Of a stretch of DNA of 21,138 nucleotides, positions 2,519 through 21,138 are shown piece by piece (position 1 is the stretch's first letter; each line of letters opens with the position of its first letter). A program made the translations under genes and the position numbers. The stretch is taken from positions 1 through 21,138 of IMG/VR virus record IMGVR_UViG_3300032282_002519. One strand, 5' to 3'. The notes beneath the pieces were generated by a model, which worked only from the letters and a program-made list of their open reading frames with translations, had not been told where the DNA came from and ran no database searches. This stretch comes from a virus.

Positions 2519-3517
2519 ATGACTGATTTGTCACACACGAAGCCTTGGAAAACTCAAAGAGAAGGATTTTTAGATTCTTTGATTTACATGCAAGGAAGAA
2601 TGAAAGGTCTTATTAAAAGTATTAAAACTCCCTGGCCTAAGTTTAATGATGCAACAACAGATGGTATAGAATGGCATTCTGTTACAGTCATAGGAGGTAG
2701 ACCAGCTAGTGGTAAAACATTAATGAAAGATCAAATAGTTAGAGAAGCTTTTAGATTAAATGCAGGTGAAGATTTTAGAGCATTAGAATTTCAATTTGAA
2801 ATGCTTGCAAGAACATCTGCTATCAGAGAATACTCCTCTGTTCTAGGTAAGACATATAAACATCTATGTAGTGCTGGAAGTATCTTAAGTGAAGATGAGC
2901 TTAAAGCTTGTCATGACCATGCTAAAGAAAGAGTAAAATACCCTATTGATGTTGTAGAAGAACCATGTACTGTTAGTGAGTTTAAGCAGATAATTGCTGC
3001 ATACATGGAAGAGCATGCTATAATAGATGGGGAAACCAAAACTTATAAAAAAACTATTGTAACCCTTGATCACTCCGTGCTACTCAAAAAAGATGCCTAT
3101 GAAAAGGATAAGTTTGATGTCCTTTATAACCTAGGTGAAGCCTTAACAAATTTTAAAAGAATATATCCCATTGCCTTTATAATACTGACCCAACTTAATA
3201 GAGATATAAATAATCCTGATAGAAATGAAGATGGTAAATATGGGAATCATATATTAGAGTCTGATATTTTTGGAGCTGATGCTCTATTACAACATGCTGA
3301 TACAGTAGTTGGAATAGATAGGCCCAGTAAAAGAAAGATTAAATACTATGGACCTGATAGATATGTAATAGACAATGATAATATTTTAGTATTACATTTT
3401 CTAAAGTGTAGAAATGGAGATGCCAGAATGAGTTTCTTTAAAGCAGAATTTGAAAGAATGAAAATAGTTGAGATGGAAACACCTCCTCAACAAGAGAGAC
3501 GTTTAAATACAAGATAA
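2519..3517 (+). CDS. DnaB-type replicative helicase, RecA-like domain, 332 aa
   Basis: This is a hexameric replicative helicase core that would unwind DNA at the phage fork. Walker A is GRPASGKT (residues 60-67), Walker B lies near IVTLDHS (Asp184), and the DnaB H4-type motif is ILTQLNRDI (222-230). The segment around SDIFGADALLQHADTVVGI (248-266) and the basic LKCRNGDA (295-302) fit the C-terminal DnaB motifs. At 332 residues it lacks the N-terminal helical domain of bacterial DnaB (usually 450-470 aa), leaving about 55 residues before Walker A. It is preceded by the palindromic repeat at 2478-2507. The next gene starts two bases after its stop. Confidence 0.9.
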   Translation: MTDLSHTKPWKTQREGFLDSLIYMQGRMKGLIKSIKTPWPKFNDATTDGIEWHSVTVIGGRPASGKTLMKDQIVREAFRLNAGEDFRALEFQFEMLARTSAIREYSSVLGKTYKHLCSAGSILSEDELKACHDHAKERVKYPIDVVEEPCTVSEFKQIIAAYMEEHAIIDGETKTYKKTIVTLDHSVLLKKDAYEKDKFDVLYNLGEALTNFKRIYPIAFIILTQLNRDINNPDRNEDGKYGNHILESDIFGADALLQHADTVVGIDRPSKRKIKYYGPDRYVIDNDNILVLHFLKCRNGDARMSFFKAEFERMKIVEMETPPQQERRLNTR

Positions 3518-3519
3518 AA

Positions 3520-4071
3520 ATGAATATAAAAACAATAACAGATAACTCTGGAGACAAAAGAGAAAGACTGAAATTAATGAGGGAGCACCAACAGCCCCTG
3601 CTTGATGCAATAGGAGAATCAAATGCATTTTATGTACCTAAGATGGCCTATAAGCCAACTGGTAAGAATGATATTCATGTATCCTTTTTTCCAAGTGAAG
3701 TTAATAGACAATGTGATATCTTTTTAGAGTTCTCAGGTAGAGATTATATACCTGAAGATCCATTGAGAAGATTATTTAAATGGAGATTTAACCCACACTT
3801 TGATGAAGAGTATGAGAAGACTGAAGCAAATGAGAGTGGACAATTTAGATATCTAGTGCCTGTATCTGAATTAGTATTGGTACAAGATCCTAGAAGTGTA
3901 ACAAAAGAAAAAGTAAAGGTAGAAGAAACACCTACTATAGAATTTGATTTAATGGACCCAGAATCTGATGCTCCATTTGATCAGCTAACTATAAGAGATT
4001 TGACTGCTATCTTATTAAAGAAACCGGTAAGTAATAAACAATGGTTAAACAAACTAATAACAGATAAATAA
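3520..4071 (+). CDS. Hypothetical protein between helicase and Sak4-like gene, 183 aa
   Basis: The family is not recognised. The N-terminal two thirds is mixed alpha/beta with many charged and aromatic residues. A strongly acidic linker (about 138-158, with DLMDPESDAPFDQ) leads to a short helical C-terminus with DLTAILLKKPVSNKQWLNKLI around residues 159-180, which looks like a conserved peptide or small interaction domain. It is tightly packed: it starts two bases after the helicase stop, and its TAA shares a base with the ATG of the next gene (TAATG). A helicase or recombination accessory role is inferred from position only. Confidence 0.7.
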   Translation: MNIKTITDNSGDKRERLKLMREHQQPLLDAIGESNAFYVPKMAYKPTGKNDIHVSFFPSEVNRQCDIFLEFSGRDYIPEDPLRRLFKWRFNPHFDEEYEKTEANESGQFRYLVPVSELVLVQDPRSVTKEKVKVEETPTIEFDLMDPESDAPFDQLTIRDLTAILLKKPVSNKQWLNKLITDK

Positions 4072-4754
4072 TGGCACAAAGTATATTAATTATTGCAGAG
4101 TCAGGGTCTGGTAAGTCTACCAGTATAGAGAATTTAGATTCTAAAGAGACCTTTATTATTAACATTGCTAACAAACCATTACCTTTTAAAGGTTGGAAGA
4201 AGAAGTATGAACTACTTACTAAGGATAATCCCCAAGGTAATATGAGTAATACAAGTTCTCCTAATGGTGTATTAAAAGCTATGGATTATATTAGTAATAA
4301 CATGCCTCACATTAAAACTTTAGTAATTGATGATTGGCAATATATGTCAGCATTTGAATACTTTGATAGATGTACAGAGAAAGGCTATGATAAATTCACT
4401 CAGATTGCAGCTGGCTTAGCTACTGTAGGTAAGAAACCAAAAGATCTTAGAGAGGATTTACAAGTATATTTCCTTACTCATGCTGAAGAATCATTAGATA
4501 TTGATGGTAAGAGAAAGATAAAAGCTAAAACAATAGGTAAGATGGTAGATAATGCTTTAACATTAGAAGGCTTATTCTCTATTGTGCTATTTGGTAAAGT
4601 AAAGAAAGATAAAGATGATAACATAAGATATGTATTTGAAACCCAGAACAATGGTGAGAATACATGTAAATCACCACGGGGAATGTTTGAAACATTTGAA
4701 ATCCCAAATGATTTAGAATATGTTAGAAAGTCTATATTAGAGTATGAAAAATAA
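4071..4754 (+). CDS. Sak4-like RecA-fold ATPase, 227 aa
   Basis: A phage ATPase of the Sak4/AAA_24 type, a distant RecA relative that anneals single strands and works with a cognate SSB. Walker A is ESGSGKST (residues 10-17), very near the N-terminus, as in Sak4. Walker B is TLVIDD (83-88). FLTHAEE (134-140) fits the sensor-like strand of the family. A late YVFETQNNGE segment (about 187-196) and SPRGMF (201-206) resemble the conserved C-terminal block of phage nucleotide-binding proteins. The next gene encodes an SSB-like protein, the expected partner. It starts with a TAATG overlap on the preceding gene, suggesting coupled translation. Confidence 0.75.
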   Translation: MAQSILIIAESGSGKSTSIENLDSKETFIINIANKPLPFKGWKKKYELLTKDNPQGNMSNTSSPNGVLKAMDYISNNMPHIKTLVIDDWQYMSAFEYFDRCTEKGYDKFTQIAAGLATVGKKPKDLREDLQVYFLTHAEESLDIDGKRKIKAKTIGKMVDNALTLEGLFSIVLFGKVKKDKDDNIRYVFETQNNGENTCKSPRGMFETFEIPNDLEYVRKSILEYEK

Positions 4755-4778: not shown

Positions 4779-5453
4779 ATGAACATTAGCACAAAAAACA
4801 TCCCTGTAAACAAAGCAGGTACCCCAAAGACATTACAACCAGGTAATGTACTAGCAAAAATTAATAGTATTGCTTTAGAGCCTTATACTTATAAACCAGG
4901 AGCTGATTATTTAGTTCTTAATTTAGAAGGTACAGATAGAGGTGCAGAGTTTGAAGGATTCTTTATTAATAAAGATAAGCCAGACTTAGGAAGACATAAA
5001 GGCCAAGTAGGTAAGGTTAAAACTTCTGAATGGGCATATGCAGATGGTACTACTACATCAGGTATTGTTATTAAAAAGAATGATGAGATCCTCAAATTCA
5101 TTAGTAGTTTATGTAAAGAGTTAAATATCAATTGGTTAGATGACCAAGATGGTAAACATGCTACAATTGAATTATTAGTAAAAGCTTTTAATACTGAAGC
5201 TCCTTTCAAGAACATCTTTATGAAGTTCTGTTTAGCAGGTAAAGAATATCAAAACAAAGAAGGTTATACCAACTATGATTTGTTCTTACCTAAGTATGCA
5301 AAAGGTAGAGTACCTTATGAAGCATGTGATAAACCAAACAGTAAGATTATTGAATTCAATGAAACAGATCATATCAAAAAGCAAAAGGCTGCTCCTGTAG
5401 CTGGTTTTGGTGGAGATAGTTCTGCATCAGCTGGATCAGATTTTGAATTGTAG
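4779..5453 (+). CDS. Putative single-stranded DNA-binding protein with acidic tail, 224 aa
   Basis: The central region (about 20-170) alternates beta strands with basic and aromatic residues, as in phage OB-fold ssDNA-binding proteins, but no family-specific motif is certain. From about residue 203 it becomes a low-complexity Ala/Gly/Ser linker ending in GSDFEL, like the acidic, hydrophobic C-terminal tip with which SSBs recruit replication and repair partners. It follows the Sak4-like ATPase, a combination known from other phages, and is the last gene before a strong terminator. It has an A-rich leader (aaaaaagaaaaaaaATG). SSB is the best call from tail plus context. Confidence 0.65.
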   Translation: MNISTKNIPVNKAGTPKTLQPGNVLAKINSIALEPYTYKPGADYLVLNLEGTDRGAEFEGFFINKDKPDLGRHKGQVGKVKTSEWAYADGTTTSGIVIKKNDEILKFISSLCKELNINWLDDQDGKHATIELLVKAFNTEAPFKNIFMKFCLAGKEYQNKEGYTNYDLFLPKYAKGRVPYEACDKPNSKIIEFNETDHIKKQKAAPVAGFGGDSSASAGSDFEL

Positions 5454-5512: not shown

Positions 5513-6517
5513 ATGATAAGAACAAAGGCTTTACTCTCAGATATAAAAGATGTGCCAAGGACATGGATCTTTGAACATTATCTAAACTTAGAAGAAAAAT
5601 TAAGTGGACAAGATGTAAAAATTAAATCCGTATTTAATGCTAGAGATAAGAATCCTTCTATGTATATTTATTTTAATCAATCTAAAGATCAATATAAGTA
5701 TAAAGATTTTTCTACTGATTGCCAAGGTGATTCAATAGATCTGGTATTAAGACTATTTAACTTAAGTAGCAGAGGTGAATCAGCTTATAAGATCATTACT
5801 GATTACAATGAATATATCTTAACCAATGGTGAGGTAGTCATAAAAGAATTTAAACAGCACTCTAAGTATAAAGTAAGTAACTTTAAGACAAGGACATGGA
5901 CAACTATAGATCAAAGATATTGGTCTAAGTATCATATAGGTTCTAGTCTATTAGAAAAATATAATGTATATCCTTTAGAGTCATATGTATTATCTAAAGA
6001 AGAGGATAATGAAACCAAAGAATTACTAATCTCTGGTAACAATATCTATGGATACTTTAGAAAAGATGGTGTACTATACAAGGTATATCAACCCAAGATT
6101 AAAGATACCAAATTTATTAAAGTCAAAGATTATATACAGGGGATGGATCAACTAACAATGGAAGTTCCGTACTTAGTAATCTGTAGTTCCTTAAAAGATC
6201 TAATGACCTTTGTAAGACTAGGTATCAAAAATGCAGAAGCTATTGCTCCTGACAGTGAGAATACTTTAATACCTGAACATATTATTCATGCATTCAAAAA
6301 TAAGTATAAAGGAATTTGTACCCTATTTGATAATGATGAGGCCGGTATAAGAGCAATGCAAAAATATAAAGACAAGTATAATCTACCTTATGTTATACTA
6401 GATATGGAAAAAGATTTATCTGATTCTATAGAGAAGTATGGTGTAGCAAATATAAGAGATATGCTAATGCCTTTATTATCAAATGAATTAAAACCAAAAG
6501 AAAATGAAAGTAAGTAA
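5513..6517 (+). CDS. DNA primase, TOPRIM type, 334 aa
   Basis: It synthesises RNA primers for the phage fork. The N-terminal region (about 35-85) resembles the CHC2-like fold of DnaG-type primases without zinc ligands: SVFNARDKNPSMYIYF, then YKDFSTDCQGDSIDLVLRLF. The TOPRIM part spans about 218-300, with FDNDEAGIRAM (residues 272-282) as the metal-binding D-x-D block. The first TOPRIM motif, where a catalytic Glu is expected, reads ICSSLKDL (223-230), with Ser instead. No helicase domain is fused; the helicase is a separate upstream gene. It is the first gene after the terminator at 5478-5500. Confidence 0.8.
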   Translation: MIRTKALLSDIKDVPRTWIFEHYLNLEEKLSGQDVKIKSVFNARDKNPSMYIYFNQSKDQYKYKDFSTDCQGDSIDLVLRLFNLSSRGESAYKIITDYNEYILTNGEVVIKEFKQHSKYKVSNFKTRTWTTIDQRYWSKYHIGSSLLEKYNVYPLESYVLSKEEDNETKELLISGNNIYGYFRKDGVLYKVYQPKIKDTKFIKVKDYIQGMDQLTMEVPYLVICSSLKDLMTFVRLGIKNAEAIAPDSENTLIPEHIIHAFKNKYKGICTLFDNDEAGIRAMQKYKDKYNLPYVILDMEKDLSDSIEKYGVANIRDMLMPLLSNELKPKENESK

Positions 6518-7302: not shown

Positions 7303-7689
7303 ATGGAAAATAAATTAAACTTAATAGGTGTAATGACCTATCTAGGTGACCTTGGTTTTAATAGAATTCAAATAAATTATTCTGGAGGTGGAGATTCAGG
7401 TTGTTTAGATACTATTATGTATCTTAAACCAGAAGATAATGAAGAAGACATAAGTCATTATGAGTTAAGTGAAAAACAAAAAGAAACTTTAAATGAATCT
7501 GTTAGAAACTTTATTGATGATCTAGCATGGACAAAGTTAAATGATATAGAAGATTGGTGGAATAATGATGGAGGATTTGGTGTTATGACTATTGCTATTC
7601 CTTCAGGGGAATTTACTATAGAGAATAATACATATTATCAGATAACTGAAACATATGAGCATGAAGGTAAATTTAATGAAGAAATATAA
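7303..7689 (+). CDS. DUF6878-like protein, 128 aa
   Basis: The arrangement matches what I recall of the DUF6878 family. An N-terminal strand runs into a glycine-rich GGGDSG (residues 28-33) followed by an acidic residue. A helical middle (about 54-85) leads to DWWNNDGGFG (around 83-92), which corresponds to the conserved W-x-x-N-DG-x-x-G of the family, and a C-terminal strand region rich in Thr and Glu follows. The biochemical function is unknown. It is followed, with a TAATG overlap, by a DUF6915-like gene. Its start context ACTTTAAATATTTATGG recurs at 13431-13448. Confidence 0.6.
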   Translation: MENKLNLIGVMTYLGDLGFNRIQINYSGGGDSGCLDTIMYLKPEDNEEDISHYELSEKQKETLNESVRNFIDDLAWTKLNDIEDWWNNDGGFGVMTIAIPSGEFTIENNTYYQITETYEHEGKFNEEI

Positions 7690-8030
7690 TGTCACATCCT
7701 ATAGAGCATTGTAAATCCTCAGTAAGAAAATGGGGTGGTCAAGTATCTGATTATCAGGCAATTCATGAATGGTTTGATGCTACTAAAGCTTGGGTATGTC
7801 ATAGTAAACACAGATTGTTTAGACATCATGCTGAAGGTATCTTTGAATGTGAAAAGGTATTTGGTCCTAGTATAATTAATTCAAATGGTAAAACTGTATA
7901 TACCCGATATATAGGGGAACAACATGTCAAGGAAGACTGTTTTGGTTACATTCCTACAGCTAAGGAATGGATAGATAACTTAGATTGTCCTAAAGAATGG
8001 ATGACAAGAACAATTAAAATAGAAGACTAA
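7689..8030 (+). CDS. DUF6915-like protein, 113 aa
   Basis: The sequence follows the DUF6915 pattern closely: an N-terminal HP-x-x-HC-x-SSV-x-KWGG (residues 3-17), DYQAIHEWFDATKA (21-34), HRLFRHHAEGIFECEKVFG (41-59), a variable strand, GEQHVKED (76-83) and a C-terminal WM. Seven histidines plus Cys and Glu residues could bind metal, but no function is established that I know of. It is coupled to the DUF6878-like gene before it and the module gene after it, each by TAATG. Confidence 0.75.
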   Translation: MSHPIEHCKSSVRKWGGQVSDYQAIHEWFDATKAWVCHSKHRLFRHHAEGIFECEKVFGPSIINSNGKTVYTRYIGEQHVKEDCFGYIPTAKEWIDNLDCPKEWMTRTIKIED

Positions 8031-8512
8031 TGACAAAAAATAATAATATTAAATTAGATATAGAAAGTTTTAATAATGTCCTAAAGATGCTAAACTCATC
8101 TGATAAAGAAAGCAATGTAATGGGTTTAGTAACAATAGAAAATTTAGATTTTAAAAAGAATCTTACAATGATATTGTTACTTAAAAAGTTATCTCAATTA
8201 CCGTTTAATATTTGGAAAGTTAATGCACCTAAAACATATAAAAAACTAAACAATATTATAAAGCTTGAAGATGCTAACAATTCAGCAGAAGGTGTACTCA
8301 CCTATAAGAATTTATTAAAAATTCTTGTAAATGAAAAACAAACTCAGGAAGATATCCAATTATTCCTGGATATTTTTGCTAATCACATCTTTAAAACAAT
8401 ACAAGGTTTAGGATTTGACTTTATTGATGATACAGAAATAACTATTAAACTAAAAACAAATGATAAACAAAACAGAATCTCTTGCGAAGACTTGCAAGAA
8501 TCTAATGTTTGA
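8030..8512 (+). CDS. Repeat-module protein A, 160 aa, before vWA/MoxR pair
   Basis: Residues 10-52 carry a module (D-x-x-S-F ... KMLNSSDKES ... NLDFKK ... MILLL) that aligns without gaps to residues 19-61 of the protein at 10863-11312 and to a segment of the protein encoded at 11317-12354. The pattern suggests two or three amphipathic helices, HEAT-like in spirit. The rest is helical (about 85-130, rich in Leu, Gln, Asp) with a short strand at the end. It is not otherwise recognised. It starts with a TAATG overlap and its end overlaps the vWA gene by 53 bases. Confidence 0.65.
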   Translation: MTKNNNIKLDIESFNNVLKMLNSSDKESNVMGLVTIENLDFKKNLTMILLLKKLSQLPFNIWKVNAPKTYKKLNNIIKLEDANNSAEGVLTYKNLLKILVNEKQTQEDIQLFLDIFANHIFKTIQGLGFDFIDDTEITIKLKTNDKQNRISCEDLQESNV

Positions 8513-9671
8513 GGAACCATTCTATGGGATGTTCCTAATAATGTTGAATAAGGTGTGGGACAATAGAGTTCCTACAGCTGGTGTATCAAAGAATGGTATC
8601 AATTTTCAATTAACAATCAATGAAGAATTCTGGGGTAGTCTATCTGAAATTAAACATCTAGGTTTGTTAAAGCATGAGCTTTTGCATATTGGGTTTTTTC
8701 ATTTAACAGATTATGATTTCCTATCAGATAAAGAGGTAGCAAATATTGCTATGGATCTAGAGATCAATCAATATATACATAAAGATTGGCTACCAGAAGG
8801 TGGTATGATGCTGGATTTATTTCCTGAACTAAACTTAGAACCAAAGAAAGGTACTCAATATTATTATGATAAGTTAATGGAGGGTAAGAAAGATAAGTCT
8901 TGTCCTAACTTAAATAGCTTATTAGAAGGTATGGGTCAAGGCCAAGCTAAGGTAACAGTTAAAATGAAAGGTGGTAAAGATGGTGATGTTAATTGTCCTG
9001 ATCATGGTACATGGGATGAATTTGATAATTTAGATGAAGCAACTAAGAAGTTGATTAAATCTCAAACAGCTCATATTCTTAATGAAATAGCAGAACAAGT
9101 AGAGAAATCTAGAGGTACTGTACCAGGAGAATTTGCTGAGATTCTTAGAAAACTTAATGAACTTGAAGAAGCTAAGTTTAATTGGAGAGCATTCCTAAGA
9201 AGGTTTGCAGGTGGTTCTACTAAGGTATATACTAAGAGAACAAGAAGAAAACAGAATATGAGATTTGAAGATAGTCCTGGTCTAAAGGTGAAACCTAAGA
9301 GAAGGATATTAGTAGGGATAGATACATCAGGTTCTGTTAGTACAAAAGAATTACAAGAGTTTATGAATGAATTACATCACATCAATAAAACAGGAACAGA
9401 TATTACTGTGGTTCAATGTGATTCAGCTATCAGTCATATAGGTAAGTTTAATGTAAATGAAGATATAGCAATACATGGAAGAGGAGGCACAAGCTTTGAA
9501 CCTGTATGTGATTATTATAATGAGCATGTTAAAGACTATAGCTGTCTAGTATATTTTACTGATGGTGAGTGCAGTGCTCCTGATAAATGTAAAGGTCCAG
9601 TACTATGGGCTATCTCCACAAATGGAACAATGAATGAAGAATTACACGGTGTTAAAATTCAATTAAACTAA
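8460..9671 (+). CDS. vWA-like / putative metallopeptidase protein (DUF2201 type), 403 aa
   Basis: Two domains are visible. Residues 5-115 resemble the putative metallopeptidase region of DUF2201 proteins, with HELLH (72-76), a zinc-protease-type HExxH motif, and a further His81. Residues 281-395 form a von Willebrand factor A-like domain with an apparently complete MIDAS: D288-T-S290-G-S292, Thr344 in GRGGTSF, and Asp368 in FTDGE. A basic linker (KRTRRKQ, about 259-265) and a Cys/His pair lie between. The next gene is a MoxR-type ATPase, the usual partner of such vWA proteins in chaperone-like complexes. ATG 8460 gives the helical N-terminus typical of the family; ATG 8505 is an alternative. 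Confidence 0.8.
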   Translation: MINKTESLAKTCKNLMFEEPFYGMFLIMLNKVWDNRVPTAGVSKNGINFQLTINEEFWGSLSEIKHLGLLKHELLHIGFFHLTDYDFLSDKEVANIAMDLEINQYIHKDWLPEGGMMLDLFPELNLEPKKGTQYYYDKLMEGKKDKSCPNLNSLLEGMGQGQAKVTVKMKGGKDGDVNCPDHGTWDEFDNLDEATKKLIKSQTAHILNEIAEQVEKSRGTVPGEFAEILRKLNELEEAKFNWRAFLRRFAGGSTKVYTKRTRRKQNMRFEDSPGLKVKPKRRILVGIDTSGSVSTKELQEFMNELHHINKTGTDITVVQCDSAISHIGKFNVNEDIAIHGRGGTSFEPVCDYYNEHVKDYSCLVYFTDGECSAPDKCKGPVLWAISTNGTMNEELHGVKIQLN

Positions 9672-9675
9672 ACTT

Positions 9676-10863
9676 ATGTCAAAATCAAATAATCAAATCA
9701 GCTTAAATGCAGAAGAATTAAAAGGCTTCATGCGTCATATTATTTCTAATAATAAAATTATTCAAGAGAAAGGTACAACACCTGTATGTGTAAATGTTGA
9801 AGGACCTGCAGGAGTAGGTAAGACATCTTCTATTGTGCAATTAGCTCAAGAGGAAGGTATGGATATTGTAAGATTAAATCTTGCAGAGTTAGAAGACTTA
9901 TCTGACTTAGTAGGTTTTCCTATTAAAGAATTTGAAATTATTAATGAAGCTAAGGTATCTAAGTGGGTACCAGAAACTTTATTGCCACAATATATAGCAA
10001 GTAAATATAAACCAACAGGTAACAAGCGTATGTCATATGCTGCTCCTGAATGGATTAATAACAAAAAAGAAGGTGGTATCTTAATCCTAGATGATTACAC
10101 TAGAGCAGATGCTAGATTCATGCAAGCAACTATGACCTTAATAGAAACACAAACATATTATTCTTGGGCATTACCTAAGAACTGGCATATCATCTTGACA
10201 ACTAATCCTGATGATGGAAACTATAATGTTACTAGTTTAGATGGAGCTCAGAAGACTAGGTTTATCACAGTAAACTTTAAGTTTGATGTAGATGTATGGG
10301 CTAGATGGGCAGAGAAACAAGGCATAGATAATAGATGTATTAACTTTATGTTGTTACATCCAGAGTTAGTTAAAGATGATACAAATCCAAGAAGTATCAT
10401 GACTTTCTTTAACTCTATTAGTTCTATCCCTGAATTCAAAGATGATTTACCATTGATTCAAATGATTGGTGAAGGATCAGTAGGAGTAGAATTCTCTACA
10501 ATGTTTACTTCATTTATCAATAACAGACTAGATAAATTAGTTACTCCTAAAGATATATTACTTCATGATAATGAATCATATATCATTGGTGAATTAAGAA
10601 ACTGTGTTGGTAGAGGTAATGATTATAGAGCAGATATTGCAAGTATCTTAACTACAAGGATTATCAACTTCACATTAAACTATGCTGAGAAGAACTCTGT
10701 AACTAGAGCTATCACTGAAAGATTAATTAAGTTATCTACAGATCCGGAGACTTTAACATATGACTTACAGTTTATATTAGTAAAGAAAATTCTTGCTGGT
10801 AACAAACAAAAGTTCCAAGGTATGTTAACAAATCCTGAAGTAATCAAAATGTCATTAAAATAA
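9676..10863 (+). CDS. MoxR-type AAA+ ATPase, 395 aa
   Basis: An AAA+ ATPase of the MoxR/RavA type, which remodels partners with the help of a vWA protein. Walker A is GPAGVGKT (43-50). Walker B is ILILDD (135-140), with Asp in place of the usual Glu. Sensor 1 is ILTTNPDDG (173-181), followed by a KTRF (193-196) arginine region. The C-terminal helical part (about 250-395) forms the lid and an extension. It starts four bases after the vWA gene stop in aaacttATG, so the two are probably co-translated. Its stop overlaps the next gene (TAATG), which carries the same module as the gene upstream of the vWA gene. Confidence 0.85.
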   Translation: MSKSNNQISLNAEELKGFMRHIISNNKIIQEKGTTPVCVNVEGPAGVGKTSSIVQLAQEEGMDIVRLNLAELEDLSDLVGFPIKEFEIINEAKVSKWVPETLLPQYIASKYKPTGNKRMSYAAPEWINNKKEGGILILDDYTRADARFMQATMTLIETQTYYSWALPKNWHIILTTNPDDGNYNVTSLDGAQKTRFITVNFKFDVDVWARWAEKQGIDNRCINFMLLHPELVKDDTNPRSIMTFFNSISSIPEFKDDLPLIQMIGEGSVGVEFSTMFTSFINNRLDKLVTPKDILLHDNESYIIGELRNCVGRGNDYRADIASILTTRIINFTLNYAEKNSVTRAITERLIKLSTDPETLTYDLQFILVKKILAGNKQKFQGMLTNPEVIKMSLK

Positions 10864-11312
10864 TGAGTGATACAATAACAAAGACAGTGCCTCCAATAGG
10901 GGGTACTGTCATTATTGATGAAGAATCATACAAGAGTTTATATAGTATGTTTAATAGTAGTGATAAAGAAAATCATACTATTGGACAAATCCTATTAACT
11001 AAATGTGATATAAAAGAATCTATATATTACATATGGAAATTAGCAAGAACTATTTATACACCACACATGGTAAACTTAAGAACCAAAGCTGGTAGAAAGT
11101 TTAGAGATGATTCAAGTTTATTTGAGTTACGGGCTTATCCTGAAGAAAGTTTTGCTAGACATCTTATAGTTAAGGATTGGATGACACCTTTTATATTTTC
11201 ACAATTAGAAGATGATATATTAAGGACTACAGTTAGAAAATGTAATAATAAATTCTATGATGTAAAGTTAGAATTAAAAGATGAATATAAACAATACTCT
11301 TCAAAACAATAA
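10863..11312 (+). CDS. Repeat-module protein B, 149 aa, after MoxR gene
   Basis: Residues 19-61 (D-E-E-S-Y ... MFNSSDKEN ... KCDIKES ... YYIWKLA) align without gaps to the module in the proteins encoded at 8030-8512 and 11317-12354. Downstream is a basic region (about 68-95) with TKAGRKFRDDSS, then RHLIVKDWMTPFI and a helical, charged tail. The function is not known. Its position directly after the MoxR gene, with shared bases at the stop/start, points to a role with the ATPase. A short Pro/Gly-rich N-terminus (VPPIGGTV) precedes the module. Confidence 0.65.
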   Translation: MSDTITKTVPPIGGTVIIDEESYKSLYSMFNSSDKENHTIGQILLTKCDIKESIYYIWKLARTIYTPHMVNLRTKAGRKFRDDSSLFELRAYPEESFARHLIVKDWMTPFIFSQLEDDILRTTVRKCNNKFYDVKLELKDEYKQYSSKQ

Positions 11313-11316
11313 AACT

Positions 11317-12354
11317 ATGGAAAGAACATTATATATAGAACATATTAAAACGGATAGGCATAATATAACTGACATAGAATATGAGTTAGTACATGTTATG
11401 GATGAATCGAGTGATATAAAAAGCTTTATAAAATCAAAATACTCTATTAAAGATAATGATGTCTTATATATAGATAAGAGCTGTACTATACCAAGATTTA
11501 AATTAAAAGAATTTTGTGCAGAAAAGAATATAAAAATTACTAGAGATATAACAAAAGCAACAAGTATATTTATTTCAGATGATATTATTAAAGAATATTT
11601 TAATTATAAAAGTTTAGAAAAAATACCTGCTAAAGATTTTGTTTATGCTTTAAATAAAAAATGCCCATATCATACTGATGCAATAAAGATTAAAGAAATT
11701 ATTGAATCTGAAAATTTAGATTTTATTGTTATAGGTTATTATACATATAGTAATCAATTAGATATAAAGATTGATTACACTAGTGATTCTTTATTGGTTA
11801 TAGATGATGAGAATTACGATAAATTTCAAGTAATACTTCAAGGTAATACACATCATCAGAATGACTTACTAAAGTTATTAAATAATTCAGTAACTATGGA
11901 TGCTGATATGTATAAACAAATGTCACAAATGTTAAATACTAGAGAAGATGCTAATATTAAATTAGCAATGGAGTTACTAGCAAATTGTGATTATGAAGCA
12001 TCAGCTGTATATATCTTATTAATATTTAAGAACTATGGTACTACAATGTGGGATTCAGGTTTCAGGCACCATGTTAATTTTAAATCTTTACTAAAATTCT
12101 TTGACTTTGATGGTAGATATACGGTATCGAGATTTGATCTTGATGATATTGTAAATAAGTTAAAATTTAAAAATCTTATGACAGATGAAAATCTTGCAAT
12201 ATTAATGCCTATTGCTGAACAAGAAATAAAAGAATATAATCATTTCTCTCACTTTAAAGTTAAAGAAATTGAGTTTGAAGAAGATAATAAAGAAGATGAG
12301 AATGAAGATGATGAAGAAATAGTTAATATAAATGATGAAGAAGTCATTTTTTAA
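11317..12354 (+). CDS. Repeat-module protein C with acidic tail, 345 aa
   Basis: The N-terminal part (about 40-95) has the order LYIDKSCTIPRFKLKEF, then NIKITRDITKATSIFIS, faintly like a BRCT fold; this is a weak resemblance. Residues 195-237 hold the module shared with the genes at 8030 and 10863 (D-A-D-M-Y ... QMLNT ... ANCDYEAS ... YILLIF), followed by a helical part with HHVNFKSLLKFF. The last 30 residues are almost entirely acidic. The start is placed at ATG 11317, in taaaactATG four bases after the preceding stop. ATG 11281 is in frame but lies inside the previous gene. It probably works with the other module proteins and the MoxR/vWA pair. Confidence 0.65.
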   Translation: MERTLYIEHIKTDRHNITDIEYELVHVMDESSDIKSFIKSKYSIKDNDVLYIDKSCTIPRFKLKEFCAEKNIKITRDITKATSIFISDDIIKEYFNYKSLEKIPAKDFVYALNKKCPYHTDAIKIKEIIESENLDFIVIGYYTYSNQLDIKIDYTSDSLLVIDDENYDKFQVILQGNTHHQNDLLKLLNNSVTMDADMYKQMSQMLNTREDANIKLAMELLANCDYEASAVYILLIFKNYGTTMWDSGFRHHVNFKSLLKFFDFDGRYTVSRFDLDDIVNKLKFKNLMTDENLAILMPIAEQEIKEYNHFSHFKVKEIEFEEDNKEDENEDDEEIVNINDEEVIF

Positions 12355-12366
12355 TAGTATATTTGC

Positions 12367-13428
12367 ATGATGAATTCAACAGATGTTAAGGCTCTTGAGG
12401 ATAAGTTTTATTCTCAAGAGTTTTACCTGAGTTATTCAGGTCTTAATAAGTTATTGTATAGTCCACAACTATTTTATAGGTGGTACATTCTCCAAGAGAG
12501 AGAAGAAAAGTTAGAAAGTTATTTACTAGATGGAAAAGTAATTCATTGTTTATTATTAGATGATGGAAGTTTTAGTAAACAATTTATTGTGTCCCCCTCA
12601 AAGTTGCCCTCAGATAATACCAGAATTGTTATAGACAAAGTGTTCCAAGCATATGTGAATTTCCAACCTATTACTAGTGATGATGGAAGTGTAGCAGTAC
12701 TATCCCCACATTTAGAAGACTTATCTATCCAAGTGATTGATACTCTAAAAGAAATGAATCTCCACCAGTCTCTCAAAACAGATGAACAAAGATTAGCAAA
12801 GATTATAAGTGAAGATACCAAGTCTTATTTTGAGTTTCTTATGCAAAAAGGAAACAAGGATATTATAGATGACATTACTCTTAAAAGATGTACTGAATCT
12901 GTAGAAATCTTAAAAAATAATAAACGTGTAAGTGATCTTATGTCTTTACAAAAATCTGATTTTGAACTACATGAAGTCTACAATGAACACTATATAGAAA
13001 CAAAAAATACATACGGAAATGTAGAAACAGGTATTTTATATCCATTTGGATTGAAGGGTGTTATAGATAATCTAGTAATAGATTATACAAAGAAGAAGAT
13101 TTATATCAATGATTTAAAAACTTCAGGTAAAACATTAGCAGATTTCCCAGAAAGTATAGAATACTATAAGTATAGCTTGCAAGGTGCAATCTATAAAAGA
13201 CTTGTAGAAGATAAATTTAAGGCAATCATAACAGCAGAATGGGAAATTGTATTTAACTTTGTAGTAATAGATAAGTATCAACAAGTATGTATATTTGAAA
13301 TATCACCCACAACAATGGGAGAATGGCAAAGCAAACTTGAAGAATCTTTGACAGAGGCAACATACCATTATACTATTAGAGATTATTCAAAACCTTATAA
13401 GTTCATCTCAGGTATAGTAACTATCTAA
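12367..13428 (+). CDS. PD-(D/E)XK superfamily nuclease, RecB/Cas4-like, 353 aa
   Basis: A nuclease of the PD-(D/E)XK fold, probably an exonuclease in recombination or DNA processing. The N-terminus (YLSYSGLNKLLYSPQLFY, 20-37) is the opening helix region common in RecB-like/Cas4-like phage nucleases. GVIDNLVID (231-239) supplies the first Asp. INDLKTSGK (247-255) gives the D-x-K catalytic pair (Asp249, Lys251), followed by the helix YSLQGAIYKR with Gln272. It may supply resected ends to the Sak4-like protein. Two adjacent ATGs (12367, 12370) could both start it. A TATATTTG sequence ends one base before the first ATG. Confidence 0.8.
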   Translation: MMNSTDVKALEDKFYSQEFYLSYSGLNKLLYSPQLFYRWYILQEREEKLESYLLDGKVIHCLLLDDGSFSKQFIVSPSKLPSDNTRIVIDKVFQAYVNFQPITSDDGSVAVLSPHLEDLSIQVIDTLKEMNLHQSLKTDEQRLAKIISEDTKSYFEFLMQKGNKDIIDDITLKRCTESVEILKNNKRVSDLMSLQKSDFELHEVYNEHYIETKNTYGNVETGILYPFGLKGVIDNLVIDYTKKKIYINDLKTSGKTLADFPESIEYYKYSLQGAIYKRLVEDKFKAIITAEWEIVFNFVVIDKYQQVCIFEISPTTMGEWQSKLEESLTEATYHYTIRDYSKPYKFISGIVTI

Positions 13429-14492: not shown

Positions 14493-14520
14493 GAGGAGGT
14501 TAACAGCCTCCTCTTTTTTT
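14493..14520 (+). terminator. Rho-independent terminator upstream of DNA polymerase
   Basis: GAGGAGG (14493-14499) pairs perfectly with CCTCCTC (14507-14513) around the loop TTAACAG, followed by seven T residues (14514-14520). The T tract overlaps a TTG that could be read as an upstream polymerase start, which argues for the ATG at 14537. It separates the second + block from the polymerase block. Confidence 0.85.
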
Positions 14521-14536
14521 GCCTAAAATATCTAAT

Positions 14537-16432
14537 ATGAATAAAGCTGTATATGATATAGAAACCTTATCCAATTGTTTTATTGTTTGCATGGAAGACT
14601 ATAAAACAGAAGAGGATAAAGTATTTGTAGTTCATGATCTCAGAAATGACTTTGATGAACTAGTAGAATGTTTTAAGCAATTAAGACAAAAGAAGGGATG
14701 GTTAGTATCATTTAATGGTATAGGCTTTGACTCTCAAGTAATGGAATACATGCTTGATAATCATGAGGATTGGGTAGGTTTTTCCGGTTGTCAAATAGCT
14801 GAGATAATATACAAGTATGCTCAAAAACTTATATCTACTCAAGATGGGGGATTCCCTGACTATCCTGAATGGAAACTAAGAATAAATAATATAGATGTTT
14901 TTAAACTTAATCACTGGGATAATCCAGCTAAAAGATCGAGTCTTAAATGGATTCAGTACTCTATGGACTGGCCTACCATACAGGATATGCCTATTCATCA
15001 TAAAGCTGTTATCACTACTATAGATGAGATAAATAGTATTATTGGTTATTGTAAGAATGATGTGAAGTCTACCAAGGCTATTATGAATTTAAGCAAAGAC
15101 CAAATTAATCTAAGGAAGACTCTTAGCCAAGAGTATAAAATTAATCTTTTTAGTGCATCTGAACCAAGAATTAGTAAAGACTTATTTTTACTATTCTTAA
15201 GTAATGCAACTGGAATACAGAAGTATGACCTTAAACAACTCAGAACTTTTAGAACTGAAATCAAGGTAAAGGATATTATCCTACCTTATATCAAGTTCAA
15301 CACGGGGGAGTTTACTAGACTTCTGAATCAGTTTGAAAAGCTTGTAATAAATCCAAATGAAACAAAGAATGCTTTTAAGTATAGTATTGATTATAAAGGA
15401 GTTACAACTGACTTTGGATTAGGTGGTGTGCATGGAGCAAAAACATCAGGGATATATGAATCAACAAAAGATATGATTATTATGTCTAGTGATGTGACTA
15501 GCTTCTATCCAAATCTAGCAATTAGAAATGGATGGTCACCAGCTCACTTACCTAAGAAGGAGTTTTGTAATTTGTATGAGTGGTTCTTTGAAGAGAGAAA
15601 GAAGATACCTAAGAAGGATCCTAAGAACTATGTCTACAAGATTGTCCTAAACAGTACATATGGCCTAAGCAATGATAAGAACTGTTTCTTATATGATCCT
15701 GAGTTTACAATGAGGATTACAATTAATGGTCAGTTATCACTAATCATGTTATATGAAATGTTAGCAGAAGGTATTCCAGGTAGTATACCTGTGATGCAAA
15801 ATACTGATGGTCTAGAGATGATGATACCTAGTAATGCCAAAGATAAGTATTTAGAAATTTGTGCAGAGTGGGAGAAGATAACTAATCTACAGTTGGAGCA
15901 TGATGAGTATAAAAAGATAATCCTTGCAGATGTCAATAATTACATTGCTATTAACACAGCAGGTAAAGCCAAGTGTAAAGGTAGATTTGATTTTGAGAAC
16001 CTAGCCTTACATAAGAACAAAAGCTTTCTAATCATACCTAAAGCAATATACAATTATTTTGTTAATGATATCCCACCAGAGAAGTATCTGGCAGATAATA
16101 GAAACATATATGATTATTGTGGAGGTGTAAAGATTAAAGGTGATTGGGCTTTTCAAATGACAAGTGTTAATCACGGTAATGTAATTGTAGAAAATCTACA
16201 ACCAACTCTTAGATATTATATTAGTGAAAAAGGTGGAAAGATAGTTAAGAAGAATAAGTATGACAACCGGACCATTCAACTTGAGTCAGGTAAATGGATG
16301 CAAGAACTCTTCATTAACTATGTAGATAAACCATGGATTGAATATAATATTGATGAGAGGTATTATCTTGAGGCTATTAGGAAAGAAATAGAAAACATAA
16401 TTAAACCAATTAAACAATTAAGTTTATTTTAA
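14537..16432 (+). CDS. Family B DNA polymerase with 3'-5' exonuclease, 631 aa
   Basis: The phage replicative polymerase. Exonuclease motifs: Exo I VYDIETL (Asp7, Glu9), Exo II around SFNGIGFD (58-65), Exo III IGYCKNDVKST (169-179). Polymerase motifs: A is SDVTSFYP (318-325, Asp319); B is YKIVLNSTYG (367-376, with Lys368, Asn372, Tyr375); C is MQNTDG (420-425), where the first Asp of the usual D-T-D is Asn while the catalytic Asp424 remains. Only about 50 residues separate motifs A and B, so the fingers are compact. A GG-x-HG element (around 296-300) precedes motif A. The start is the ATG at 14537 in tctaatATG, since an in-frame TTG at 14519 lies in the terminator T tract. Confidence 0.88.
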   Translation: MNKAVYDIETLSNCFIVCMEDYKTEEDKVFVVHDLRNDFDELVECFKQLRQKKGWLVSFNGIGFDSQVMEYMLDNHEDWVGFSGCQIAEIIYKYAQKLISTQDGGFPDYPEWKLRINNIDVFKLNHWDNPAKRSSLKWIQYSMDWPTIQDMPIHHKAVITTIDEINSIIGYCKNDVKSTKAIMNLSKDQINLRKTLSQEYKINLFSASEPRISKDLFLLFLSNATGIQKYDLKQLRTFRTEIKVKDIILPYIKFNTGEFTRLLNQFEKLVINPNETKNAFKYSIDYKGVTTDFGLGGVHGAKTSGIYESTKDMIIMSSDVTSFYPNLAIRNGWSPAHLPKKEFCNLYEWFFEERKKIPKKDPKNYVYKIVLNSTYGLSNDKNCFLYDPEFTMRITINGQLSLIMLYEMLAEGIPGSIPVMQNTDGLEMMIPSNAKDKYLEICAEWEKITNLQLEHDEYKKIILADVNNYIAINTAGKAKCKGRFDFENLALHKNKSFLIIPKAIYNYFVNDIPPEKYLADNRNIYDYCGGVKIKGDWAFQMTSVNHGNVIVENLQPTLRYYISEKGGKIVKKNKYDNRTIQLESGKWMQELFINYVDKPWIEYNIDERYYLEAIRKEIENIIKPIKQLSLF

Positions 16433-16433
16433 C

Positions 16434-17462
16434 ATGCCAAAAAGAACGGGTACAACAACAAAAGAGTATTTAGCTAGTATACCACTCCCAACACATGGGG
16501 GTAGGTATACAGTTATTTCACACAAATTTATTATAGATGCAACTCTATCAGAGTTAGCAAGTAAAGGATTACAAGTAGAAACTGAACTATATAGATGTAG
16601 TTTAGATGGCAACATTGCAACAGCAGTATATCATATTAAGCATGAACAAGATCCTGAACTAGGAATGATATTTACCTGGAGTAATAGCTATGATAAATCA
16701 ATGAGATTTAAATGTGCAATAGGTGCATTTGTTCACACATCTAAGAATCTTATTATCAAAAAAGAAATGGGATCTTGGGGTAGAAAACATACAGGTGTAG
16801 CAGATATGGAGGCCTTACAAACAATACAAGATCAAATTGCTAATGCTAATGTAAACTTCAATAGAATCATAGAAGATAAAGAGAAGATGAAACTTGTAAC
16901 AGTAAGTACACAAGAAGCAGCTGAAGCAGTAGGGAGATTGTATTTAGAAAAGGAGTTACTAACTAGTGAGCAAATGGGTATTGTTAAATCCCAATTCAAA
17001 GCACCTAAGTTTGATTATGTATCTTCAGCAGATAGTTTATGGGTATTTTATAACCATATAAGTTATGCATTACAAAGAGCACATCCAAAAACTTGGATGG
17101 ACCAACAGAGACTAGTGAACTGGTTCTTGTGTGATAAGTTTGGTTTGAACTTAATTCAAGCACAACCATCTTTAAATGTACCAATAACAAATGAGGTAAT
17201 AGGTGAAGTAAATATAGATGCTCTAGAGGTGAAGACACAATCAGTAGAAGAAGTAGTAGTAAGTCCCTATAGACAGATAACACTAGATGAAGCAATAGCA
17301 GAAGCTGAACAAGAAATATCTGAACCAAAAGGAAGTGACTTTGATCTTGATGCATTATCTCTAGATAAAGTATCTGAGGTTCAAGACTTTACAGCTGATA
17401 TAGATGATTTTAATCTATTAGGTGCATCTAGTAATAACATAATAGAAGACTTTGATCTATGA
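16434..17462 (+). CDS. DUF932-like protein with repeated acidic SSB-tail-like motifs, 342 aa
   Basis: Residues 25-240 resemble the DUF932 phage/plasmid family: MIFTWSNSYDKSMRFKCAIGAFVHTSKNLI (79-108) matches its conserved NSYD, GAF and C/H-x-S/N-x-L-I pattern, and SLWVFYNHISYAL (201-213) its N-x-x-T-like helix. The family is of unknown function but common beside phage and plasmid replication genes. From about residue 255 the chain is acidic and disordered-looking and carries SDFDL (301-305), DDFNL (324-328) and terminal EDFDL (338-342), all similar to the tip of the SSB-like protein (GSDFEL). It may bind the same partners as SSB. It starts one base after the polymerase stop. Confidence 0.7.
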   Translation: MPKRTGTTTKEYLASIPLPTHGGRYTVISHKFIIDATLSELASKGLQVETELYRCSLDGNIATAVYHIKHEQDPELGMIFTWSNSYDKSMRFKCAIGAFVHTSKNLIIKKEMGSWGRKHTGVADMEALQTIQDQIANANVNFNRIIEDKEKMKLVTVSTQEAAEAVGRLYLEKELLTSEQMGIVKSQFKAPKFDYVSSADSLWVFYNHISYALQRAHPKTWMDQQRLVNWFLCDKFGLNLIQAQPSLNVPITNEVIGEVNIDALEVKTQSVEEVVVSPYRQITLDEAIAEAEQEISEPKGSDFDLDALSLDKVSEVQDFTADIDDFNLLGASSNNIIEDFDL

Positions 17463-18938: not shown

Positions 18939-21138
18939 TTACCTATTTAGGTTTAATGATTGTGCTGTTTGGAAGTTCTTAAGAGCTGTAACCGGATCTA
19001 TACTAGATGCATTTATACCATACATTCTAGCTATGTGAGACCATAATTTAGCACCACCTTGTTGTTGCCACTCATATGGACCCATTCTTCTAGCATAATA
19101 TGCCTTATCTGAACCTTCAAACATATTTACTATATCAGTACCAGCTGAGAAGTATGAATCTAATGTTGGACCAAAGCCTATTGATTTAAGATCTGTAAAT
19201 GGAGCTAACACAGCTTTAGGATGCCAGAATGCTAATTGCTCATTCTCAGCTTTAATTTGCATCATTAATAAACCTGCATGTACTTGCATAAATCCACCAA
19301 AATTAAATGGATCTTCTTCCTCTGATACACCAGGTATATGTAATGGACCTGTCTTTTCTCTTAATTTTTGATATCTATCTGGGTCATCAGGATCAAATCC
19401 ACCTAGTATCATAGCAGATAACATACCAACTAAAAATAAGGTAGCTACTTCTGTAAATACTTGCATAAAAGCTTCCTTTTCTTTTGGACCCATATGTGCT
19501 AGATTCTTTTCTTTAATTGTTTCTAGCAATGACTTTACAGCTGTTACATAATAACCTTCATCCATACCACCTAATCCAACATTCATTCTGTTTTTAGCAA
19601 ATCTATTTACAGCCATCTCTGTAAAGTAACCTTTCATGAAACTTACCATTCTAAATGCTAGATATCTTTTTGCATCAGGTTGATCAAATTTAGATACAGC
19701 TCCAATAAGTTTGTTGTTTACCATATGAATTCTATTCTTCATTGCTATAAACTTCTTACCTAGTTCTACTGTACCATCATCATTGTATTTGATTCCATAT
19801 TCTGGATCTATACCTGGTTTAAGTTGTAACTTACCATCTTTTACTTCCCAAGCTTCAATGTAAGGTATTTCTATATTACCCATCATTACCTTTTCTTTAT
19901 ACATCATACCTGCTGATGCTGCTAAAGTAGATTGTAATTCGGTCCATTTTCTAACATTTACTAACCAAGATCTATCTACTATATCTTTTCCTAATGTTCT
20001 GGTCATTCTGGTTCCAAACTTATCTTCTGTTCTTCCTTGTGCAAAGTCCATAGTTTCTGCTAATAAAAGCTCAACATCTGTAGTTGGTCCCTTATATACA
20101 TTCATACTTATCTTACCCATAACTCTAGCAGACCATACTTCACCCTTTAGATATGTTCTAGGTGTAAGGTATTTACCTGCAGAAGACATGATAATAGCTT
20201 GTAATTTAGCTCCAAAAGCATTCTTTAATGCTGATGTTATATTTATTGCAAAGAAAGCATTGGCTGCTCTTTTAAACATAAAGTTAGAAGCATTCTGTAA
20301 TATCTCAGAATCTGATCCCCAACCTGTAGTATTAGCTCCTCTAAACTCTCTATCATATAAAGCCTGAAATTGTTGTTGCCTTATATAGCTTCCTTTTTTA
20401 TTTACAAACTTAATTAGACCTGTGTTTCTAAAAGCACCTGCATTAATTGAATCAGCTTCTTTAGGTTGGTTATTTGGGTCAGTTAATAATGACTTAATAG
20501 CCTGAGCTAATGGGTTGATTTCAATTAATTTTTTTTGCTTCTCTGCTCCATACATATATCTCATCATGGATGTGAAAACATCTGTAGAGGTCTCATACTC
20601 ATCATAGTCTGATAACCCGGATACTGGGATTTTGTCTATGGCATTATCAAACATGTCTGTTTGAACTAGTTTAAGTTGTGCTTTAAAGTTTAATCCTTTA
20701 TCATAATCTGATCTGGATCCTAAAAAGAACTCTCTTATTCTATTAATTATTTGTTGAATTAACCCAACTTTTTCTCCTGGTTTTTTAGTAAATGCAGTTT
20801 GTGCCATCTCAAGATCACTCTTTAGATATCTTGGATAATCATAATATAACTTACTATTCTTTGGAGATCCTTTTTGCCACTCTATAAATGTCTCTTTTGT
20901 TTTTTCAAGTAAAGCAAACATAGCCGGGTCTCTCTTCTGTAGATCATAATATTCTTCATTTCTATAAGGACTATTAATTAAATCTTTAGGAAGGAAGTTA
21001 CCTTTATTGTCTATATGTTCTCCTACTTTAAGTTCTACTTTACCAGTAGCTTTATTATATCCATTTCTATATTCTTTTTTTACTACCCTAGCAAAATACT
21101 TAAGACTTGGGACACCATCTATCTTACCTATGACATTA
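18939..21138 (-). CDS. C-terminal part of very large phage protein, probably virion-associated, 5' end outside window
   Basis: The frame stays open from the stop at 18939 to the right edge, so about 732 residues are visible and the N-terminus is missing. The Met at 20921 is internal: 72 more codons precede it without a stop (ending ...YYDLQKRDPAM). The region is largely helical, with a YDYPRYLKSDLE-like segment, an Ala-rich stretch (ANAFFAINITSALKNAFGAKL) and one probable membrane segment near the end (FTEVATLFLVGMLSAMILGGF) followed by DPDDPDRY. This resembles the C-terminal portions of giant phage polyvalent or ejected internal virion proteins, but no enzyme motif is visible. Its minus orientation marks the start of another genome module. 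Confidence 0.7.
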   Translation of the reverse strand, partial: NVIGKIDGVPSLKYFARVVKKEYRNGYNKATGKVELKVGEHIDNKGNFLPKDLINSPYRNEEYYDLQKRDPAMFALLEKTKETFIEWQKGSPKNSKLYYDYPRYLKSDLEMAQTAFTKKPGEKVGLIQQIINRIREFFLGSRSDYDKGLNFKAQLKLVQTDMFDNAIDKIPVSGLSDYDEYETSTDVFTSMMRYMYGAEKQKKLIEINPLAQAIKSLLTDPNNQPKEADSINAGAFRNTGLIKFVNKKGSYIRQQQFQALYDREFRGANTTGWGSDSEILQNASNFMFKRAANAFFAINITSALKNAFGAKLQAIIMSSAGKYLTPRTYLKGEVWSARVMGKISMNVYKGPTTDVELLLAETMDFAQGRTEDKFGTRMTRTLGKDIVDRSWLVNVRKWTELQSTLAASAGMMYKEKVMMGNIEIPYIEAWEVKDGKLQLKPGIDPEYGIKYNDDGTVELGKKFIAMKNRIHMVNNKLIGAVSKFDQPDAKRYLAFRMVSFMKGYFTEMAVNRFAKNRMNVGLGGMDEGYYVTAVKSLLETIKEKNLAHMGPKEKEAFMQVFTEVATLFLVGMLSAMILGGFDPDDPDRYQKLREKTGPLHIPGVSEEEDPFNFGGFMQVHAGLLMMQIKAENEQLAFWHPKAVLAPFTDLKSIGFGPTLDSYFSAGTDIVNMFEGSDKAYYARRMGPYEWQQQGGAKLWSHIARMYGINASSIDPVTALKNFQTAQSLNLNR

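What the first reader, a model, noticed from the sequence alone, without database searches (positions are those of the whole stretch)
8030..12354. Three genes share one unnamed module of about 43 residues and bracket a MoxR/vWA pair
Proteins at 8030-8512 (residues 10-52), 10863-11312 (19-61) and 11317-12354 (195-237) align without gaps: an invariant starting Asp, [FY] at +4, M at +10, N at +12, D at +30 and I at +38, plus NSSDKE in two copies. The module looks helical and HEAT-like. One copy lies before and two after a vWA/metallopeptidase-like gene and a MoxR ATPase, all overlapping or nearly so. This suggests one complex in which duplicated adaptor proteins deliver or recognise targets for the ATPase. 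I know of no named family for the module.
Basis: partly seen in the sequence, partly recalled or inferred. Interest (0 to 1): 0.7.

Follow-up and report, generated by a model that had tools for sequence, protein, structure and literature searches.

The report
Phage ATPase-protease operon with duplicated helpers
A group of uncultured, crAss-related viruses of bacteria carries a strictly conserved set of four or five neighbouring genes: an ATP-driven unfolding ring, a protease partner, and two or three related small helper proteins of a kind not named before, lying in the virus's DNA-copying region and probably working as one machine.

Summary
The three proteins are homologous over about 125 residues (profile-profile E 1.6e-10 to 7e-17), not 43. 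Predictions from separate alignments give the same seven-helix fold for A and for the C-terminal half of C. C also has an N-terminal alpha/beta domain that looks BRCT-like by structure (not significant by sequence), and often an acidic-aromatic tail.

In uncultured phages the gene order h(A) - metallopeptidase-vWA - MoxR - [B] - C is nearly invariant. All 61 MoxR-anchored loci with enough downstream sequence carry C. All but 3 of 80 C-anchored loci carry the vWA gene, and those three are contig ends. No module gene lies more than 1.5 kb from the pair.

Relatives are absent from 50,697 GenBank phages, from a pattern scan of GTDB genomes, and from MoxR/vWA loci of four other phages. A 122-kb relative has a crAss-like terminase and portal.

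The MoxR plus metallopeptidase-vWA pair itself is published in jumbo phages; the paralogous module family and the C protein appear undescribed. Most likely this is one AAA+ remodelling/protease machine with paralogous scaffold or adaptor subunits acting on replication-associated targets. Function is inferred; co-conservation is shown.

The parts
8030..8512 (+). Protein A (160 aa): single helical module, first gene of the unit; h domain about 8054-8407
   Evidence: AlphaFold pLDDT 84, seven helices 11-126; A-type gene upstream of V in 65 of 74 MoxR-anchored loci
8460..9671 (+). V: zincin-like metallopeptidase (DUF2201_N) fused to vWA (DUF2201), phrog_1314
   Evidence: Pfam 1e-15 and 6.6e-12; HExxH in 92/93 and MIDAS DxSxS in 90/93 full-length homologues
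8673..8687 (+). HELLH metal-binding motif of V (residues 72-76)
9321..9335 (+). MIDAS motif DTSGS of V (residues 288-292)
9676..10863 (+). M: MoxR-like AAA+ ATPase, phrog_1297
   Evidence: E 9.2e-34; Walker A and B kept in 84 of 87 full-length homologues each
9802..9825 (+). Walker A of M (residues 43-50)
10081..10095 (+). Walker B of M (residues 136-140)
10863..11312 (+). Protein B (149 aa): single helical module with the MVNLRTKxxRxFRD motif; h domain about 10911-11273; in a subclade its place is held by a full-length N+h protein
11317..12354 (+). Protein C (345 aa): N-terminal alpha/beta domain + helical module + acidic tail
   Evidence: AlphaFold pLDDT 90.3; present in all 61 MoxR-anchored loci with at least 1.5 kb downstream
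11443..11880 (+). N-terminal alpha/beta domain of C (residues 43-188), BRCT-like by structure, with invariant P59, R60, K62
   Evidence: VIA-align list dominated by BRCT domains, best Z 6.6 over 77 residues; profile match to bacterial LigA BRCT not significant
11878..12270 (+). Helical module of C (residues 188-318) with AMExxAN and (H)VNFKSL motifs
12295..12351 (+). Disordered acidic C-terminal tail of C ending DEEVIF
   Evidence: pLDDT below 50 at residues 327-345; acidic-aromatic tip in 28 of 58 C proteins

Best explanation
The five genes encode one machine of a crAss-related phage group: a MoxR AAA+ ring (M) driven by ATP, a co-chaperone/protease (V) whose MIDAS site grips a protein ligand and whose HExxH domain may cut it, and two or three paralogous helical-superhelix subunits (A, B, C) that dock targets or tether the ring. 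C carries a second, BRCT-like domain and often an acidic-aromatic tail, and so probably links the machine to DNA or the phage replisome, where it remodels or clips DNA-bound protein complexes during replication or recombination. Shown: homology of A, B and C; the same fold for A and C; conserved catalytic motifs; near-invariant synteny and co-occurrence; location in the replication block. Inferred: physical complex, adaptor role, DNA-linked targets, proteolysis.
For: Homology over ~125 residues. Gene order h-V-M-[h or n+h]-n+h in nearly all loci; of 80 C-anchored contigs 79 have M and 77 have V, the misses being contig ends; of 61 MoxR-anchored contigs with enough sequence 61 have C, and 65 of 74 have A. 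Translational overlap: A-V overlapping in 83/98 loci, B-C in 29/32. HExxH 92/93, MIDAS 90/93, Walker A/B 84/87. Wherever the flanks are covered, the unit lies between primase and an exonuclease VIII-like gene plus PolB. C shares acidic-aromatic C-terminal tips with g4779 and g16434 of the same block: 28/58, 16/37, 21/34 vs 104/1615 of all ORFs. AR9's homologous MoxR gene carries an annotated early promoter. A MIDAS-bearing partner that recruits clients to a MoxR ring is the established logic of midasin, RavA-ViaA and CbbQ-CbbO (PMC7159879 for the first two; PMC4660213 for the Rubisco activases, abstract; details from general knowledge).
Against: No interaction, activity or target has been shown by anyone. 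Position in a replication block is shared by many unrelated phage genes. BRCT is not significant by sequence: hhalign probability 9%, score 19.4 vs best shuffled control 17.3 but a natural control at 18.1; no BRCT chain in hmmsearch of the PDB. Some loci lack A or B. Iyer et al. 2021 place the homologous pair of jumbo phages in virion assembly.
Confidence: 0.42

Rival explanations
1. The module proteins are structural or regulatory subunits of the V-M ring (caps, tethers, hexamer organisers) and do not bring in targets; V itself binds the target through MIDAS.
For: Two or three paralogues of one fold suit a pseudo-symmetric assembly; A is translationally coupled to V (83/98 overlap); all copies stay next to V-M.
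Against: C has an extra alpha/beta domain and a variable acidic tail, more typical of a recruiting subunit. Not excluded.
Confidence: 0.28
2. Virion assembly or maturation chaperone-protease, as proposed for the MoxR plus metallopeptidase-vWA pair of group 2.2 jumbo phages by analogy with Acidianus two-tailed virus.
For: Published proposal for homologous proteins (PMC7824862); V and M are clear homologues (AR9 V E 5.4e-47, M 6.6e-17).
Against: The unit lies in the replication/recombination block, away from capsid genes, which in the 122-kb relative G001 lie at about 40-58 kb while the unit lies at about 97-114 kb; AR9's copy has an annotated early promoter.
Confidence: 0.2
3. Host take-over or counter-defence device that disassembles or degrades a host complex early in infection.
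For: MoxR-vWA pairs are the core of prokaryotic conflict systems with a third conserved component (PMC7159879).
Against: No effector domain in A, B or C; no meaningful PADLOC match (GajB E 0.0039 at 13.7 bits is noise). Near-invariant retention in the group is unlike fast-changing conflict genes.
Confidence: 0.1

Closest known systems
MoxR AAA+ / metallopeptidase-vWA pair of group 2.2 jumbo phages (Iyer et al. 2021, PMC7824862) and of phages AR9, Vibrio D497, Pantoea G19
   Same: Homologous ATPase and zincin-vWA fusion, adjacent genes
   Different: There the order is MoxR then vWA; no A/B/C homologue found in four such loci; here V precedes M and paralogous module genes bracket the pair
MoxR-vWA ternary systems (VMAP, iSTAND, FtsH; Kaur et al. 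2020, PMC7159879)
   Same: MoxR ring, MIDAS vWA and a third conserved component
   Different: Third component here is a paralogous helical family with a BRCT-like fusion; no effector domains; phage replication block rather than a multicellular bacterial conflict operon
RavA-ViaA, CbbQ-CbbO, midasin
   Same: Works-like comparison: MoxR-type ring plus MIDAS vWA partner recruiting a client
   Different: No peptidase domain and no A/B/C family in those systems (established knowledge, not tested here)
ARM/HEAT, VHS, ENTH and CID alpha-superhelices
   Same: Weak fold resemblance of the h module
   Different: Z below 6, no sequence link, no repeat unit found
BRCT domains (PARP1, PARP4, Dbf4, Rev1, LigA)
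   Same: Most of the C N-domain VIA matches; in-register weak profile match PRxKxK...GIKxVRD...AtxIF
   Different: Not significant by sequence; aligned range 43-192 for about 77 aligned residues implies an insertion

Membership tests
MoxR-type AAA+ ATPase | AAA+ profile match and Walker A/B motifs | tested here: met
   phrog_1297 9.2e-34; GxxGxGK[TS] and hhhDD each in 84 of 87 homologues. Pfam AAA matches stay below the curated cut-offs (AAA_5 E 0.0031), so the name MoxR rests on PHROG and homology to annotated phage MoxR genes
DUF2201 metallopeptidase-vWA fusion | DUF2201_N and DUF2201 domains above cut-off, HExxH, MIDAS | tested here: met
   58.4 vs cut-off 26.4 bits and 46 vs 23.2 bits; motifs in 92/93 and 90/93
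Published jumbo-phage MoxR + metallopeptidase-vWA pair | Adjacent homologous ATPase and peptidase-vWA genes | tested here: met
   (AR9); gene order differs
BRCT domain | Significant BRCT profile match | tested here: inconclusive
   Structure list dominated by BRCT, Z up to 6.6; Pfam only 2 of 52 members at best E 0.05; hhalign probability 9%
HEAT/ARM or ENTH/VHS/CID superhelix | Superhelical fold with significant structural match | tested here: inconclusive
   Z 4-5.6 to many superhelices, below the level the tool calls meaningful; no Foldseek match at E 0.001
VMAP / iSTAND / FtsH ternary conflict system | VMAP, inactive STAND or FtsH third component plus effector domains | tested here: inconclusive
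   No Pfam, NCBIfam or PADLOC match of A, B or C to such components, but VMAP models may be missing from those libraries
Substrate adaptor of an AAA+ protease | Binds both the ring and a target | not testable with these tools
   needs biochemistry

The most novel reading that the evidence does not exclude
A phage-encoded AAA+ ring plus zincin protease dedicated to stripping or cleaving proteins on replicating DNA, steered by a new family of paralogous helical adaptors, one of which carries a BRCT-like DNA- or replisome-binding domain: a viral counterpart, in logic, of p97-SPRTN/Wss1.
Probability: 0.17. Interest if true: 0.8.

Novelty: new variant of a known kind. Interest (0 to 1): 0.55.

Why it matters
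MoxR-vWA machines are widespread, but their clients and adaptors are known in only a few cases. Here a phage group keeps a MoxR plus protease-vWA pair locked to two or three copies of one undescribed adaptor-like fold. That gives a compact, repeated experiment in how such a ring acquires partners. The metallopeptidase-vWA pair in phages has so far been assigned to virion assembly by analogy; its position here inside the replication block makes that assignment directly testable.

Tried and rejected
A alone as a query in viral contigs found nothing; the A profile was too variable for a pattern scan. No hit for B or C in GenBank phages apart from two chance ssRNA-phage matches; no C relative in GTDB genomes by pattern scan. 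Leptolyngbya phage Lbo-JY46 (whole genome) and the two thirds of csAssE-Sib that were read, the best portal matches, do not carry the system. Pfam hits of A to PTHB1 and CBM_21 and of C to DUF4062 are below cut-off and taken as noise; PADLOC GajB likewise. PHROG's name 'HNH endonuclease' for the V family is wrong here: it is metallopeptidase-vWA by Pfam. BRCT membership could not be proved. Coincidental neighbourhood was rejected because the linkage survives anchoring on either C or MoxR.
Full report
What the window is. The window is a 21,138-base IMG/VR virus record. Its genes form a replication/recombination block: DnaB-type helicase (2519-3517), Sak4-like ATPase (4071-4754), Toprim primase (5513-6517), an exonuclease VIII-like gene (12367-13428), and a family B-like DNA polymerase (14519-16432, phrog_1252). 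A 122-kb relative (G001, the record behind L018) has a terminase and portal most similar to crAss-like and Flavobacterium phages, and for the portal also Leptolyngbya phage Lbo-JY46, at about 23-34% identity. So the group is crAss-related by these markers. Its hosts are not known from this work.

The observation. The pairwise similarity is above chance. With orthologues the matter is settled: profile-profile comparison links A, B and the C-terminal half of C at E 1.6e-10, 3.3e-15 and 7.3e-17 over 124-149 columns. Each family's HMM, iterated, collects the same set of about 240 ORFs. The homologous unit is therefore about 125 residues.

Folds. A and C were predicted from separate alignments (51 A sequences; 52 C sequences). 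C has mean pLDDT 90.3 and A 84.0. The helices come in the same order in both: A 11-21, 26-37, 45-54, 59-65, 67-80, 92-101, 106-126; C 196-207, 211-222, 230-245, 248-251, 253-261, 275-284, 290-307 (C has one further short helix, 267-271). This rests on secondary structure order and profile alignment; the two models were not superposed. B was not modelled because only two jobs were allowed; its profile link to C is the strongest of the three. Solved structures that resemble the module are ARM/HEAT, VHS, ENTH and CID superhelices, all at Z below 6.

The extra domain of C. Residues 43-192 of C match mostly BRCT domains in the structural second look: PARP1 Z 6.6, 77 residues, rmsd 3.5 A; PARP4, Dbf4, Rev1, MCPH1 and BRCA1 follow. 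Among viral models the only strong matches are four uncharacterised proteins, from an uncultured Caudovirales phage, Podoviridae sp. ctz6O13 (two proteins) and CrAss-like virus sp. ctYsL76; weak matches include phage NAD-dependent DNA ligases and BRCT proteins. A sequence profile of 31 bacterial BRCT domains aligns in the expected register (PRxKxK...GIKxVRD...AtxIF) but is not significant: probability 9%, score 19.4, none of 200 shuffled or reversed profiles as high, one natural control at 18.1. I call this domain BRCT-like by structure, unproved.

Linkage. The co-occurrence test was done from two sides. Anchored on C (439 relatives found, 80 kept), 79 of 80 contigs also hold MoxR and 77 hold the vWA gene; the three without vWA start or end inside the unit. 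Anchored on MoxR (474 relatives, 80 kept), all 61 contigs with at least 1.5 kb downstream hold C, and 65 of 74 with at least 700 b upstream of vWA hold an A-type module gene. In the first 114 loci no module gene lies more than 1.5 kb from vWA or MoxR. Some contigs occur under more than one locus id, so counts within a scan should be used, not sums across scans. Coding overlaps are common: A-vWA in 83 of 98, B-C in 29 of 32.

Paralogues. A-type modules form one group in the module tree (support 0.84, 0.76). B forms another (all 12, support 1.0). In 21 MoxR-anchored loci the gene after MoxR is a second full-length N+h protein followed by C. A subset of these first copies joins B with support 0.93. 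The simplest history is three old positions (before vWA, after MoxR, last), with B having lost the N-terminal domain in the window's relatives and the whole middle gene missing in most phages (h V M n+h). Deep branch support is modest, so this history is a suggestion.

Catalytic parts. HExxH is kept in 92 of 93 full-length V proteins and the MIDAS motif in 90 of 93; Walker A and Walker B are each kept in 84 of 87 full-length M proteins. Both partners therefore look active.

What is known. Iyer et al. 2021 (PMC7824862) reported the MoxR plus metallopeptidase-vWA pair in group 2.2 jumbo phages and proposed virion assembly. The passages found there do not mention a third component. Kaur et al. 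2020 (PMC7159879) described ternary MoxR-vWA conflict systems with other third components. A search for papers holding both 'crAss-like' and 'MoxR' gave none. Four phage loci with the pair (Vibrio D497, Pantoea G19, Vibrio SRILMA, Bacillus AR9) have MoxR first and no module homologue; in SRILMA the MoxR gene was found but no vWA gene was detected by our model. So the pair is known; the module family and the C protein appear undescribed within what could be searched.

How it probably works. By analogy with other MoxR-vWA machines, V would recruit a client through its MIDAS site and hand it to the MoxR ring, and its zincin domain may cut it. The paralogous h proteins would be scaffold or adaptor subunits. 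C, with its BRCT-like domain and often an acidic-aromatic tail like those of two other genes of the same block (28/58, 16/37 and 21/34 proteins against 104/1615 background ORFs), is the best candidate for the link to DNA or replisome. Only homology, fold, motif conservation, gene order and location are shown. The complex, the client and the proteolysis are inferred. Virion assembly, a purely structural role for A/B/C and a host take-over role remain open.

Mobile introns. MoxR and V genes are split in many relatives at fixed codons, several of which fall on or beside catalytic motifs: MoxR about 43 (Walker A) and 140 (Walker B), V about 72 (HExxH), plus about 97 and 342. Rfam recognises group I introns at four of these places; ten inserts checked carry GIY-YIG or LAGLIDADG homing endonucleases, though Rfam finds no intron in six other loci even at a relaxed threshold. 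Such insertion sites are typical of genes with slowly changing active sites, an indirect sign that both enzymes matter to these phages.

Noticed in passing
L024, L027, L034, L051, L068, L084, L085 and others; MoxR codons ~43 and ~140, V codons ~72, ~97, ~342: MoxR and vWA/peptidase genes of relatives are interrupted by ~0.3-1.1 kb inserts at or near Walker A, Walker B and HExxH codons; group I introns by Rfam in L027, L039 and L085, and GIY-YIG or LAGLIDADG endonucleases in ten inserts checked.
   Followed up: partly
16415-16429 (C-terminus of the DNA polymerase): The phage DNA polymerase ends in QLSLF; 39 of 46 relatives end in a QLxLF-like motif, which matches the canonical bacterial sliding-clamp-binding motif, suggesting use of the host beta clamp.
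   Followed up: partly
4779-5453, 16434-17462 and 11317-12354 (C-termini): Three families of the block share acidic-aromatic C-terminal tips (DFEL, EDFDL, EEVIF; relatives DFEWF, IDWF, PDFF), reminiscent of SSB and T7 tails, far above background; they may dock on one partner.
   Followed up: partly
18939-20921, minus strand: 660-aa protein on the opposite strand, only weakly similar (22%) to a gene annotated as RNA-polymerase subunit in crAss-like phage cr106_1.
   Followed up: no
7303-7689 and 7689-8030: DUF6878 and DUF6915 genes lie just upstream of the unit in most relatives; function unknown, possibly linked.
   Followed up: no
L024 2891-4521 (Sak4-like gene), L016 12225-15322 (DNA polymerase): The Sak4-like ATPase gene and, in L016, the DNA polymerase gene are also split by inserts.
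   Followed up: no
phrog_1314 (V family, window 8460-9671): PHROGs labels the metallopeptidase-vWA family 'HNH endonuclease', and the same label appears on its homologues in GenBank Vibrio phage records; Pfam shows metallopeptidase plus vWA.
   Followed up: yes
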